Source: Desulfuromonas sp. TF (lineage in GTDB: Bacteria; Desulfobacterota; Desulfuromonadia; Desulfuromonadales; ATBO01). From it: a stretch of DNA of 36,521 nt. Each line of letters opens with the position of its first letter. Position 1 is the stretch's first letter. A program made the translations under genes and the position numbers. The notes under the pieces are model-generated. The model was not told the DNA's origin and made no database searches. It saw nothing but the letters and a program-made list of their open reading frames with translations. Of this stretch, positions 2,606 to 25,605 are shown one piece after another. The stretch lies in the NCBI RefSeq assembly GCF_000472285.1, contig NZ_KI421413.1, forward strand, positions 345,852 to 382,372. Reading direction: 5' to 3'.

Positions 2606-3057
2606 ATCTAGCCGTTGACAAAATGCCCCCCATTGACCCGGTATGGGACGGTCTTCTTGCTTTAAACAAGGGCCGCCCTTAGAAAAGGACAAGAGTCATA
2701 ATTTGCTAACGAGTTGCTTCATGCGTTCCTTTAACCATTCCCTGTTATCGGGGATTTCAGGAAAGAGGCGGAATGCCTGCTCCTTGGATACAAATACTAT
2801 GCAGGACAATATTTCGGGGAAAATCCACCCTTTCCCGCCTTATGACTCCGGACACCACCTTTTCGAAATCGGACTCGGTACATCAGAAACGGCCGCCGGC
2901 AAAGACGACCGATCGGGTTTTATAAGTTCTGGTGTTCCATGATTTCATCCATGATCTGACTTTGGCGAAAGACGAACGGGGCCGATGCCAGGGAGACGAT
3001 TACGATAAATACGGCTTTAATTTCAAACGCCTCCGATTGTTCGAACGGGGTAATCCC

Positions 3058-3092
3058 TGCCGTGGCGGGAATCGCAGCTTCCCGCCACGGCA
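3058..3092 (-). terminator. 14-bp perfect hairpin after the AhpD-like gene
   Basis: TGCCGTGGCGGGAA (3058-3071) and its exact complement (3079-3092) flank a 7-base loop, 12 bases past the stop of the minus-strand AhpD-like gene. The stem is very stable but has no T-tract on either side. It may stabilise the mRNA end or act with Rho. Confidence 0.55.
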
Positions 3093-3104
3093 TCATCCGG
3101 CGGA

Positions 3105-3662
3105 TCAGCCTGCCTTGGGCACCCTTTGCGCTCCGGCAAAGGCTTTGTCCAGAGGCGTATCGACCAGGTTGTTGGTGTAGTTTGACAGGGTCTTGAGGGT
3201 CACGCCCAGCACGACTTCCAGCACTTGCGAACGGCTGAACCCGGCATCGAGAAACGTCCGGACTTCCTGCTCGGAGGCCCAGCCCCGCTTTTCGACCAGC
3301 GTCTCAGTGAACCGACGCAGGGCTTCCAGGCGCGGATCGGGAATGGGGCGCTCTTCACCCAGGGCCTCGATCACCTCTTCGGGCACCTTTTGCATTCTGG
3401 CGATGGTCGAGTGCGCCGCGACGCAGTAATCGCATCCGTTCCTGATGCTGGCCGCAATCAGGACCGTTTCGCGCTCCGCCGCGGTCAACGAAGATTTTGC
3501 CAGCAGATCGGAGACCGAAATATAGGCCTCAAGGGCAGCCGGCGCCTCGGCCAGCACTCCGAGCAGATTGGGGATAAAACCGTTTTTGCGCTTGGCACCC
3601 TCCAGGAGCGGTCGGGAAGCTTCGGGTGCGGTTTCCATGGTATGAACGGTAAGATGTCTCAT
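3105..3662 (-). CDS. AhpD-like / carboxymuconolactone decarboxylase family protein
   Basis: A 185-residue protein with the AhpD/CMD core. The segment RNGCDYCVAAHS gives the CxxC pair (Cys77, Cys80) and His84, preceded by the conserved ERE acid region. In AhpD and peroxidase-related members, this CxxC-xxx-His set reduces peroxides or peroxiredoxins. Two ATGs are possible; the second (3662, MRHLTV) is preferred because AAAGGAG lies 8 bases upstream of it but only 2 bases before the first (3668). It follows the OYE gene by 18 bases on the same strand, so the two are almost certainly co-transcribed under the TetR-type operator at 4885. The context suggests defence against electrophiles or peroxides. 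The substrate is unknown. Confidence 0.85.
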   Translation of the reverse strand: MRHLTVHTMETAPEASRPLLEGAKRKNGFIPNLLGVLAEAPAALEAYISVSDLLAKSSLTAAERETVLIAASIRNGCDYCVAAHSTIARMQKVPEEVIEALGEERPIPDPRLEALRRFTETLVEKRGWASEQEVRTFLDAGFSRSQVLEVVLGVTLKTLSNYTNNLVDTPLDKAFAGAQRVPKAG

Positions 3663-8872: not shown

Positions 8873-8959
8873 TGGTGCCGAAGGGGAGACTCGAACTCCC
8901 ACGCGCCTACGCGCACTAGACCCTGAACCTAGCGTGTCTACCAATTCCACCACTTCGGC
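8873..8959 (-). tRNA. tRNA-Leu (anticodon CAG)
   Basis: Read on the minus strand, the 87 bases begin GCCGAAG and end CTTCGGCACCA, giving a perfect 7-bp acceptor stem with a genome-encoded CCA. The anticodon loop TTCAGGG gives CAG, decoding CTG. GTTCGAGTC is the T-loop, and there is a long variable arm as expected for tRNA-Leu. Its 3' end faces the decayed accessory region. Confidence 0.95.
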
Positions 8960-22456: not shown

Positions 22457-23278
22457 CTATTTGGTCAAAAGATCAAGAAAACCCTGGATGGTCGACAGCT
22501 TCCGTTCCGATTCAGAATAGAGCTTGGAAGAGAAGATAGCGGTGGCGGCATGACCTGCCAGCAGGGTAAAGAGTTCGTAATCCACCTCGGCAAACCGGTC
22601 CTTCTGAACCAGCAGTTTATAGATGACGATCACGCCGATGACGTGTTCCTTGATCTTGAGGGGGATGCAGACAATGGGATGATTGAAATCCCTGACATAT
22701 CCCTCCATCTCATCGATGAAGTAGTTTTCTCCCGTTTTGGCCATCTGACCGATGATCCCCTCGCCGATGCCGACCTTCGGCAGTTCGGACTGCTCCAGAC
22801 CTTCCGTGGCCACCGCCTGCAGCTTGTTGGTTTTTTCGTCCAGAAGCATGATGGCGAATTCTTCGGCGCCGATGAGATTGATCACGATCTCGGTAATGAC
22901 CTGAAGGACCTCGCGAAAATCGAGAGTCGAATGGAGCTGATAGGAGGCGATATAAAGGTTGGCCAGATTGTTGTTTTCCGTCTCGATCTCGACGTAACGG
23001 TTGGCGAAATCGAGGTTCTCCGCCTCTATCTGCTTGATGCGATCGAGAATCTCACTCTTCTCCTGCTCCAGCTCCTCAATGCGGCGAAGCAACTTTTCCG
23101 CTTCGATACCGGAAAGGCCGCCCTCTGTCTTGACGGTTTCCTGAAGTTGCAGAATCTGAAAACGCAGCCGCTCGTTTTCCTTGAGCAGTTCCTGGGTGAA
23201 TTCGGCACCCTTCTTAAAGACCTGCAGAAATTCCTCGGCCCTGCTTGCCGAACCTCTGGTGTCGTCTTTTTCCGCCAT
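22457..23278 (-). CDS. Coiled-coil and GAF domain protein
   Basis: A 273-residue soluble protein. Residues about 20-110 are charged heptad-like coiled coil (ENERLRFQILQLQETV, EELEQEKSEILDRIKQIEAE). A GAF domain follows (about 115-255), including FREVLQVITEIVINLIGAEE, GIGEGIIGQMAKTGE and CIPLKIKEHVIGVIVIY. GAF domains bind small ligands or act in dimers; there is no catalytic domain. Together with a CheY directly downstream and che genes upstream, it may be a cytoplasmic sensor or scaffold of the chemosensory system. The start has AGGAGA upstream. A MITE-like hairpin ends immediately before this ribosome site. Confidence 0.82.
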   Translation of the reverse strand: MAEKDDTRGSASRAEEFLQVFKKGAEFTQELLKENERLRFQILQLQETVKTEGGLSGIEAEKLLRRIEELEQEKSEILDRIKQIEAENLDFANRYVEIETENNNLANLYIASYQLHSTLDFREVLQVITEIVINLIGAEEFAIMLLDEKTNKLQAVATEGLEQSELPKVGIGEGIIGQMAKTGENYFIDEMEGYVRDFNHPIVCIPLKIKEHVIGVIVIYKLLVQKDRFAEVDYELFTLLAGHAATAIFSSKLYSESERKLSTIQGFLDLLTK

Positions 23279-23288
23279 GGTATTCTCC

Positions 23289-23453
23289 TAAACTTGATGC
23301 ACTCGCAAAAACTCAGAGGATGGCTAAGCAAAAATTTCGTCCTACAAGGCATGGTGGTTTTTCTGGGGCGAAGGCATACATCAGGTATGTCGAGGTCCTG
23401 AAAAAACACCGTAACGCCGTAGGGCGGACTTTTTGCGACGCCATTAAACTTGA
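23289..23453. mobile_element. MITE-like hairpin element with 9-bp direct repeats
   Basis: TAAACTTGA occurs at 23289-23297 and again at 23445-23453. Just inside them are inverted arms: TGCACTCGCAAAAACTC (23298-23314) matches the complement of GACTTTTTGCGACGCCA (23428-23444) at 13 of 17 positions. Further inside, CGTCCTACAAGGCATGGTGG pairs imperfectly with the stretch before 23428, and GCATAC-ATCAG-GTATGT marks the centre. The left arm has about 23 extra bases (near 23315-23337). The element has no reading frame of its own. The direct repeats look like a target-site duplication, so a non-autonomous transposable element is likely; a structured leader RNA is the alternative. The next 200 bases up to CheB hold nothing that I recognise. 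Confidence 0.6.
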
Positions 23454-23659
23454 CAGGTGCCCGATATCAGGCGCAATCCTACCAGCACCCGGAATAAATG
23501 TCGACCTTTTACACTGTCTTTCCGTCCGGATAACGGTTTCTTTTCCGCCACAGCGGCCTCATCCTCTTGAGCAACCTCAGACTTTCTGCCCCCGAAGGAA
23601 GAACTCTCCGTCTGCTACCCGGAAATTCACCCGAGTTCCTCCTGAACTTCCCGATGCCA

Positions 23660-24733
23660 CTAAGCGGAATAGCGACCAAACCCGCAACGGTGGAGGATCG
23701 CCCCTCCCATCTGAGGCAGCGGCACAATCTTGTCCACCTTACCAGTGGCGATGGCCTCCTTGGGCATGCCGAAGACCACGCTGCTGCTTTCCGCCTCGGC
23801 AAGGACGGCGCCACCCTCTTCCTTGATGCTCACCACCCCCCGGGCGCCGTCGTTCCCCATGCCGGTCAGGACGACTCCCAGCAATCGAGATCCGAAAATT
23901 TCACTGGCGGAAGTGAACAGGACATCGGCCGACGGGGTGTAGCGCTGATTGGCAGCGGGCTCCACGACTTCCGCCAGGACTTCGTCGCCGCGCCGGCGAA
24001 AAAGCAGATTCTTTGCGCCGGGCGCCACCAGAACGGTACCGGGACGCATCCGGTCCCCCGAACGGGCCTCGCGGATCTCCAGAGGACAGTACTTGTTGAG
24101 ACGATCGGCAAAAGCCTTGGTGAATCCCGGAGGCATATGCTGGGCGATGGCGATGCCGAGGGGAATCGGCTCCCTTATAGCTGAGAGAATGGCCTGAAGA
24201 GCTGGCGGTCCCCCCGTTGAAGCGGCGATAACCACCTGATTGATCTGTTCCCCATCTGCTGCCCTGATTTTGGCGGCCTGCCGCAAGGGCCCAGCGGTGC
24301 CGGGAGCGGGGCGGTTCAGGACCTTCTTCATATCGGTGCGGGCGATGGTCCGAACCTTTTGGAGCAGGTCTTCCTGGATACTGAAAAGTTCCGGCGAAAC
24401 CCTGGCCGAGGGCTTGGCCACGAATTCGACCGCGCCGAACTCGAGGGCCCGGAATACGTTTTCGTCTTCGGATCGCGCCGAAACCACGATCACCGGAGTC
24501 GGCCGGTTCTGCATGACCACCCGCAGAAAAGAGAAGCCGTCCATGCGGGGCATCTCAAGATCTAGAGTGATCAGGTCTGGCTTGAGGTCGAAGACCTTTC
24601 GCAGCCCCTCCTCCCCGTTGACCGCATAACCGACCACCTCGACCCCCGGGATGGTTTCGAGCATTTTGATGATGGTGCGTCGATTGTAAGCCGAATCGTC
24701 CACCACGAGCACCCGCACCTGGTCGTTCATCAT
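23660..24733 (-). CDS. cheB: Chemotaxis methylesterase/response regulator CheB
   Basis: A 357-residue protein with an N-terminal receiver domain (VLVVDDSAYNRR; phospho-acceptor Asp58 in TLDLEMPRMDG) and a C-terminal methylesterase domain. The catalytic set is visible: Ser in IAASTGGPPAL, His in AQHMPPGFT, Asp in TGMGNDGARG. CheB removes methyl groups from chemoreceptors and deamidates some of them when phosphorylated by CheA. The start overlaps the cheR stop (ATGA), so cheR and cheB are coupled; ATG 24730 and a GTG at 24739 are alternatives. Full length. It is the last gene of the main che run before the hairpin element. Confidence 0.95.
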   Translation of the reverse strand: MMNDQVRVLVVDDSAYNRRTIIKMLETIPGVEVVGYAVNGEEGLRKVFDLKPDLITLDLEMPRMDGFSFLRVVMQNRPTPVIVVSARSEDENVFRALEFGAVEFVAKPSARVSPELFSIQEDLLQKVRTIARTDMKKVLNRPAPGTAGPLRQAAKIRAADGEQINQVVIAASTGGPPALQAILSAIREPIPLGIAIAQHMPPGFTKAFADRLNKYCPLEIREARSGDRMRPGTVLVAPGAKNLLFRRRGDEVLAEVVEPAANQRYTPSADVLFTSASEIFGSRLLGVVLTGMGNDGARGVVSIKEEGGAVLAEAESSSVVFGMPKEAIATGKVDKIVPLPQMGGAILHRCGFGRYSA

Positions 24734-25605
24734 CGCCACTCCCCACCCCCCGTCTGCGGCGGACGCTGATAAACCATGTCATGGGTGTAGTGTCTCAGGA
24801 CAAAGGCGTTCGTGATGCTCATCAGCGATTCGGAATGTCCGAGGAGAAGAAATCCTTCCGGCCTGAGTCTCTGATAGAAATTCTCCACCACCCGCTTCTT
24901 GGCAGCAAGATCGAAATAGATGATCACGTTGCGGCAGAAAATGACGTCCATTTTCCCAAGAAGGGCGACCCGGGGGGTGTCGAAGAGATTCAGATGGCTG
25001 ATGGTGACCAGCTTTTTCAGAGAATCGGCAATGCGATGCTTCCCGTCGACCTCGGTGAAAAAACGCCGCTGCACGGCAGTCTCCGTGCTGCGGAAGGACG
25101 CGGATCCGTAAACCCCCTTCCGCGCAGTCTGCAGAACCTTATGGCTGATGTCGGTGCCGATGATATCCACCTGCCAGTCTGCAAAAGCGGGTATGTCGTG
25201 CAGCAGCATGGCAATGGTATAGGGTTCCTCGCCGGTCGAACATCCCGCACTCCAGATCCGGAGCTTTCGATCCCCTTCCCTCGCCTTGCGTTCGCGAATC
25301 TCCGGAAGAATCTCCTGGGTGAAGGTTTTGAGCTGAAAGTCCTCCCGGAAGAAATAAGTCTCATTGGTAGTCAGGGCATCGATGACTTCATTGAGTTCTT
25401 CCTCCTTTTGTCGCCCGTAACGCAGGAGATAGTAGTAATCCTTGAAGTTCTTCATTTTATGATGCTGCAGCCGCTTGCCCAGACGTTTTTCCAGCAGGTA
25501 TTTGGAGTCTTCGGTAAAATGCAGCCCGCAGTGCTGATAGACGAAATCCCGCAGCAGACGAAATTCCTCGTCGTTCAGAGGTATGTCGGGGGTAAAGAAC
25601 AGCAT
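24730..25605 (-). CDS. cheR: Chemoreceptor methyltransferase CheR
   Basis: A 291-residue SAM-dependent glutamate methyltransferase. The N-terminal helical domain includes VYQHCGLHF and KRLGKRLQHH. The catalytic domain has TTNETYFFREDFQ, the SAM-binding IWSAGCSTGEEPYT, and DVIFCRNVIIYFD. It methylates chemoreceptors. There is no TPR extension, and the C-terminus lacks nothing obvious. The ATG overlaps the HEAT-gene stop by one base (TAATG), and its own stop overlaps cheB, so translation is coupled on both sides. The receptor it modifies is not encoded in this window. Confidence 0.95.
   Translation of the reverse strand: MLFFTPDIPLNDEEFRLLRDFVYQHCGLHFTEDSKYLLEKRLGKRLQHHKMKNFKDYYYLLRYGRQKEEELNEVIDALTTNETYFFREDFQLKTFTQEILPEIRERKAREGDRKLRIWSAGCSTGEEPYTIAMLLHDIPAFADWQVDIIGTDISHKVLQTARKGVYGSASFRSTETAVQRRFFTEVDGKHRIADSLKKLVTISHLNLFDTPRVALLGKMDVIFCRNVIIYFDLAAKKRVVENFYQRLRPEGFLLLGHSESLMSITNAFVLRHYTHDMVYQRPPQTGGGEWR

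What the first reader, a model, noticed from the sequence alone, without database searches (positions are those of the whole stretch)
23289..23453. MITE-like hairpin with 9-bp direct repeats inserted at the GAF gene ribosome site
The sequence shows TAAACTTGA on both sides of a 147-base segment with imperfect terminal inverted repeats (13 of 17), paired inner segments and no coding capacity. That is the layout of a non-autonomous transposable element with a target-site duplication. It lies directly before the AGGAGA of the GAF gene, so it would become the mRNA leader of the GAF-CheY unit and may cut it off from, or connect it to, the cheB transcript. From memory, similar CGCAAAAAGTC / GACTTTTTGCG intergenic repeats occur in deltaproteobacterial genomes, but I cannot verify this here.
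Basis: partly seen in the sequence, partly recalled or inferred. Interest (0 to 1): 0.65.

Follow-up and report, generated by a model that had tools for sequence, protein, structure and literature searches.

The report
Mobile hairpin that favours gene ends
The stretch just before this bacterial sensor gene is a 150-base jumping DNA hairpin that makes no protein and has dozens of relatives in the same genome; across related bacteria its copies often sit right at the stop signal of a gene, nearly always facing the same way, which is unusual for such elements.

Summary
Window 23296-23445 is a 150-bp non-coding hairpin element with imperfect terminal inverted repeats and a target-site duplication (TSD). 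The family gives 44 BLAST matches in this genome, this copy included, and occurs in 24 of 58 genomes searched, up to 98% identical. In 29 of the 29 other cheB-GAF loci examined the element is absent. It is a MITE-type insertion just upstream of the GAF ribosome site. No autonomous partner was found.

Two features exceed the ordinary. (1) The right end abuts the 3' end of an open frame of at least 150 codons in 36 of 85 copies, the left end in 4 of 85; with TSD intact it is 20 against 0 of 49. At 100 codons or more, 24 of 40 right-end stops are TGA made of a flank T plus the element's GA. (2) In relatives, not here, IS110-type ends sit at one position of the hairpin (10 of 22 end hits), beside a possible bridge RNA. 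The window copy itself is unremarkable.

The parts
23296..23445 (+). the MITE-like element, 150 bp, orientation of the family consensus GATGCACTCGC...GCGACGCCATC
23290..23295 (.). target-site duplication, left copy AAACTT
23446..23451 (.). target-site duplication, right copy AAACTT
23296..23314 (+). left terminal repeat GATGCACTCGCAAAAACTC
   Evidence: alignment of copies
23319..23339 (+). second, inner copy of the end motif (GATGGCTAAGCAAAAATTTCG), base of the main hairpin
   Evidence: two left motifs at constant offsets in copies
23427..23445 (-). right terminal repeat, read on the - strand as AATGGCGTCGCAAAAAGTC (family: GATGGCGTCGCAAAAAGTC)
23319..23445 (+). main imperfect hairpin
23421..23422 (-). 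position (CT on the - strand) equivalent to the site where IS110-type ends sit in relatives; unoccupied here
23284..23289 (-). AGGAGA, likely ribosome site of the GAF gene, directly after the TSD
   Evidence: read; same position in relatives' leaders
22457..23278 (-). GAF-domain gene
23660..24739 (-). cheB (receiver + CheB methylesterase)
23476..23504 (-). sigma-70-like promoter match between cheB and the element (TCGACA-17-TAGGAT, 9 of 12); consensus match only
   Evidence: 1 found, shuffles mean 0.3

Best explanation
A MITE-type non-autonomous DNA transposon. Shown by sequence: a dispersed family, imperfect terminal inverted repeats GATGNNNTCGCAAAAA[G/C]TC, 6-bp TSD with consensus near TC-ANNNNT-GA, no coding capacity, a long hairpin, and absence from the orthologous site in relatives. 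Inferred: an unidentified transposase acting in trans cuts a 6-bp staggered, palindrome-like target and pastes the element. Here it landed between cheB and the GAF gene, 6 bp (the TSD) upstream of AGGAGA, so any GAF transcript that starts upstream of it carries the hairpin in its leader. Across the family the right end lies at gene 3' ends, often so that target T plus element GA keep a TGA stop; whether this comes from the insertion step or from selection is not known. In its host the element is most likely a near-neutral passenger.
For: 44 matches in the own genome. 24 of 58 genomes with matches, best 98% identity in another family of the order, while the GAF gene of MITE-bearing relatives is only 69-76% identical in DNA (8 loci), which points to horizontal spread. 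TSD length 6 stands out: 74% positional identity against a shuffled-pair mean of 44%, maximum 48% of 500, over 103 copies; the only other length above its shuffle maximum is 7 (46% against 38%), which overlaps it. cheB next to GAF in 30 of 30 loci examined and the element only in the window's genome. By a home-made gene call, 29 of 30 own copies examined (30 of the 44 matches) are intergenic. In 8 of 11 further own-genome places examined, both ends are fused with the hairpin gone, at several different junctions, as expected of deletion at a hairpin base.
Against: No autonomous partner: no inverted-repeat pair bracketing a transposase in the loci checked for PF01609, PF00665, PF13751 and PF01610, nor in 231 loci (1.04 Mb) scanned apart from an IS110 lying inside a copy and pairs of separate elements; one chance-looking distant pair, L167, was not followed. 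46 of 103 copies share fewer than 5 of 6 TSD bases. The cheB-GAF gap of the window without the element is about 225 bp, longer than in 27 of 29 relatives (range -8 to 255 by a crude stop-codon rule), so the empty site could not be aligned base by base. No movement was observed.
Confidence: 0.93

Rival explanations
1. A conserved leader RNA or regulatory element of the GAF-CheY unit that happens to have repeats at its ends.
For: It lies directly before the ribosome site and folds stably. A promoter-like match lies just upstream.
Against: Absent from 29 of 29 other cheB-GAF loci examined; dozens of copies beside unrelated genes; no Rfam family at gathering threshold in the window except a tRNA; the fold is weaker on the GAF mRNA strand.
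Confidence: 0.04
2. A REP/REPIN-type palindrome moved by a RAYT tyrosine transposase.
For: Short, palindromic, intergenic, high copy number, and used by IS110-type elements as a landing site, as REPs are (abstract of PMC1525189).
Against: RAYT genes were not searched for.
Confidence: 0.03
3. The bias to gene 3' ends is selection after random insertion: copies elsewhere or the other way round are lost, for example because the + strand RNA hairpin (more stable in 93 of 94 copies) would destabilise an mRNA if it trailed a gene.
For: Strand asymmetry of folding. The target motif is close to symmetric, so target sequence alone should not set orientation.
Against: Copies with TSD of at least 5 of 6, presumably younger, already show 20 right against 0 left of 49, as strong as the rest (16 against 4 of 36).
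Confidence: 0.5

Closest known systems
Prokaryotic MITEs in general (review PMC10969869, sections read)
   Same: Under 500 bp, terminal inverted repeats, flanking direct repeats, mainly intergenic, stable stem-loop, truncated derivatives
   Different: Doubled left end motif; strong one-sided placement at stop codons; no parent IS found
Chunjie MITE of Geobacter uraniireducens (only as described in PMC10969869)
   Same: MITE of the wider Geobacter relatives, tens of copies, conserved ends and direct repeats, many partial copies
Multicopy nucleotide sequences of Geobacter and Pelobacter genomes (passages of PMC2996986, PMC2700814, PMC3543383, and section 21 of PMC2996986)
   Same: Repeated, partly palindromic intergenic families in the same bacterial group
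   Different: Alignments are in supplements I could not open, so identity with any of these families is untested
REP palindromes as targets of IS110-type elements (abstract of PMC1525189; passages of PMC11208160)
   Same: A repeated palindrome serves as a landing site for IS110-type elements, with a CT core in IS621
   Different: Here the target is a TSD-flanked MITE; the bridge RNA is predicted from sequence only

Membership tests
MITE | short (<500 bp), no coding capacity | tested here: met
   150 bp; no ORF contained in the element in the 100-aa list; 60 of 103 copies are exactly 150 bp
MITE | terminal inverted repeats | tested here: met
   imperfect, 14 of 19 in this copy, conserved in the family
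MITE | target-site duplication | tested here: met
   6 bp; 49 of 103 perfect, 57 of 103 at least 5 of 6
MITE | dispersed, multicopy, intergenic | tested here: met
   44 matches; 29 of 30 examined intergenic by a home-made gene call
MITE | related autonomous element or transposase with the same ends | tested here: inconclusive
   none found, but searches were partial
MITE | demonstrated mobility | not testable with these tools
   only comparative evidence: 29 of 29 relatives' sites lack it
REP/REPIN | no TSD (recalled definition) | tested here: not met
   6-bp TSD in the family
REP/REPIN | RAYT transposase | not tested
   no search was run
conserved leader RNA | conservation at the orthologous locus | tested here: not met
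   0 of 29 relatives' loci examined
known Rfam family | score above gathering threshold | tested here: not met
   only a tRNA at 8876-8959 in the whole window

The most novel reading that the evidence does not exclude
The family is a safe-site MITE: its unknown transposase, or an accessory factor, places it at stop codons in one orientation, and the element's terminal GA restores TGA so that the gene is read unchanged. It is in turn a programmed landing site for a bridge-RNA-guided IS110 element, giving a two-layer system of harmless gene-end insertion.
Probability: 0.25. Interest if true: 0.68.

Novelty: new variant of a known kind. Interest (0 to 1): 0.45.

Why it matters
The window copy alone is one more MITE. 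The family is of wider use: one-sided insertion at stop codons with the stop rebuilt from the element's own end is a concrete, testable rule for how a small transposon can multiply without breaking genes. If it is set at insertion, the missing transposase would be a natural enzyme that targets gene ends. The recurring IS110 position offers a natural set of insertions for testing bridge-RNA targeting.

Tried and rejected
Autonomous partner: end-motif searches, convergent long pairs fetched and read (pairs of separate elements around ordinary genes such as leu genes and uvrC, named here from the translated sequence), scan of 231 loci, four transposase families (sites checked). PF01609 gave 50 rows but only 30 loci, all 30 checked; the other three families gave 7, 4 and 6 matches, all checked. 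Nothing brackets a transposase except L204, which is an IS110 inside a copy and not the partner, since the family makes a TSD and IS110 was seen at a CT core.

Plasmid and phage collections: no match. Viral contigs: 27 stretches hold the loose end pattern, most in unrelated phage sequence; one, L158, is a true relative at 87%.

RNA consensus: alifold on 94 copies kept only 14 inner pairs, so no claim of covariation of the whole stem is made. The excess of G-U over A-C there is biased by folding the + strand; one search is the fairer comparison.

Intrinsic terminator in the element: none found in 23200-23760, so termination was dropped as the cause of the orientation bias.

G030 doubled copies: identical pieces joined at N, taken as assembly artefacts.

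Bridge RNA: left guides fit their own targets (8 and 6 of 9 against 4 and 3 of 9 crosswise), but 126 of 5000 shuffles also reach 8 of 9, and the right guides do not discriminate (own 4, 6, 7 of 8; crosswise 4-6 of 8). The left target of L233 is off its contig.

Literature: no description of this element found in searches (two sequence-string hits are unrelated human-gene papers, by title); supplements were not open to me.

Full report
What was checked. The direct repeats and the inverted ends are at the stated coordinates. The + strand folds at -70.1 kcal/mol, z -5.33, with 0 of 200 shuffles as good; the - strand, which the GAF mRNA would carry, gives z -2.17 with 9 of 200 as good.

A dispersed family. 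The 186-bp query has 44 matches in the own genome, the window copy included, from full length at 85-97% identity to short end fragments. Of 58 genomes searched as relatives, own included, 24 have matches; at most 14-18 per genome were scored, so copy numbers there are lower bounds. Best identities to the window copy are 98% in a genome of another family of the order. An exact 31-base pattern in the named genome collection gave 55 stretches, 54 labelled with Desulfuromonadales, Desulfuromonadaceae, Desulfuromonas, Pelobacter, Geobacteraceae or Deltaproteobacteria and one with Chloroflexi. The GAF gene of eight relatives that carry the element is 69-76% identical in DNA, so copies 91-96% alike in those genomes are more similar than vertical descent would suggest; horizontal movement is inferred.

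Ends and duplication. A BLAST of the consensus against all fetched loci gave 245 hits; 97 partial, 2 at edges, 11 with N and 32 duplicates were dropped, leaving 103 distinct complete copies. Left and right flanks agree over exactly 6 bases at 74% of positions, against 44% on average and 48% at most in 500 shuffled pairings; length 7 reaches 46% against a shuffle maximum of 38% because it overlaps it. 49 copies match 6 of 6, 57 at least 5 of 6, and 46 fewer, so nearly half have no clear duplication. The target is close to TC-ANNNNT-GA. The 9-bp repeat of the window is therefore a 6-bp TSD, AAACTT, widened by the preferred GA and by a C to T change at the element's last base.

Anatomy. The left side carries two end-like motifs 23 bases apart, GATGCACTCGCAAAAACTC and GATGGCTAAGCAAAAATTTCG, the right side one. 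The inner left motif pairs with the right end to form the hairpin. In 8 of the 11 own-genome places examined the hairpin is gone and both ends are fused at several different junctions, with three places partly deleted; deletion at the hairpin base is inferred. In 93 of 94 copies the + strand RNA folds more stably than the - strand (means -63.1 and -49.1); the copies are related, so these are not independent.

This locus. The GAF protein has matches in 101 of 136 genomes of the order. In all 30 best loci, the window's included, cheB lies just upstream; the element matches only the window's. The other 29 gaps run from -8 to 255 bp by a crude rule, with AGGAG-like sites before GAF in most. The window's gap without the element is about 225 bp, longer than in 27 of the 29, so a base-by-base empty site could not be shown. 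A promoter-like match at 23504-23476 on the - strand would, if used, put the element in the GAF leader; this is a consensus match only.

Orientation at gene ends. For 85 of the 103 copies with at least 600 bp on both sides I asked whether an open frame running into the element stops within -15 to +11 bases of the junction. At 100 codons or more: right end 40, left end 8; at 150: 36 and 4; at 200: 26 and 2. The control 200 bp outside gives 2 and 3 at 100 codons. Relatives alone (69 copies) give 31 and 5 at 100 codons. Of the 40 right-end stops, 24 are TGA made of the last flank base T and the element's GA. With TSD of at least 5 of 6 (49 copies) the count at 150 codons is 20 and 0; with less (36 copies) 16 and 4. 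Splitting by identity gives 16 and 2 (44 copies) and 20 and 2 (41 copies). The 36 right-end frames fall into 36 clusters by shared 4-mers, and 36 against 4 has a binomial p of 1.9e-7. Of 20 of these 36 frames sent to Pfam, 18 have a family, for instance phosphoglycerate kinase, Hsp90 and chorismate synthase. A home-made gene call in the own genome gives a stop within 5 bp of the right end in 14 of 30 copies (one of them, L016, truncated at that end) and of the left end in 0 of 30. Both ends begin GATG, so either orientation would keep TGA; stop-codon rescue cannot by itself explain the bias. The window copy follows the same orientation, with the cheB 3' end 216 bp from its right end, but it is not one of the stop-codon cases.

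IS110 layer. L204 is a named Desulfuromonadales contig in which a 329-aa IS110-type transposase (PF01548, PF02371) lies inside a copy: consensus 126-150 on one side, 1-127 on the other, sharing AG/CT. The protein has matches at E <= 1e-60 in 3 of 136 genomes, not in the own one. A pattern for the left end of this IS (it includes one flanking C) gave 22 hits in 8 of 136 genomes; 9 lie at the same right-arm position and 1 at the mirror position in the left arm. A further site in L233 is seen from the right end only. The remaining 12 lie elsewhere, several at other GC-rich palindrome-like sequences; one (L316) is too degenerate to call. Upstream of the transposase is a 272-base region with stretches matching target and donor as in IS621 (passages of PMC11208160): the left target guide fits 8 of 9 in L204 and 6 of 9 in L234, against 4 and 3 of 9 crosswise, but 126 of 5000 shuffles also reach 8 of 9, and right guides do not discriminate. 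The bridge RNA is suggestive, not shown.

Reading. It is a MITE by sequence criteria with its partner unknown. The family's placement at stop codons in one orientation is the unusual part; selection and targeting remain open.

Noticed in passing
85 complete copies in fetched loci (e.g. L003, L004, L005, L010, L011, L107, L108, L332): Right end of the element abuts gene 3' ends (36 of 85) far more often than the left (4 of 85), often rebuilding TGA with the element's own GA.
   Followed up: yes
L204 158-1617; also L233, L299-L301, L306, L307, L310, L311, L313-L315: IS110-type element or its end sits at a fixed CT in the hairpin stem; upstream RNA shows partial guide-like matches.
   Followed up: partly
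L217 509-664 and 4591-4745; L271 about 3021-3172: A second subfamily with the same ends and a different middle; the L271 copy has a perfect 6-bp TSD AATGAT.
   Followed up: no
L319 1463-1520: A 58-bp palindromic element with the same ends and a perfect 6-bp TSD ATGTGT.
   Followed up: no
L228 300-750: Three copies in head-to-tail tandem with about 10-bp spacers.
   Followed up: no
L091-L096, L100, L101: Eight short own-genome relics in which both ends are fused and the hairpin is lost, at several different junctions.
   Followed up: partly
L158 273-400; L150, L157, L159, L161: IMG/VR contigs with a relative of the element (L158, 87%) or with the same end motif and other interiors.
   Followed up: no
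94 copies: + strand RNA folds more stably than - strand in 93 of 94 copies; cause unknown.
   Followed up: partly
L194 (JADFVC010000358.1): A contig labelled Chloroflexi carries the element; transfer or a misbinned contig.
   Followed up: no
window 8876-8959: tRNA gene on the - strand.
   Followed up: no
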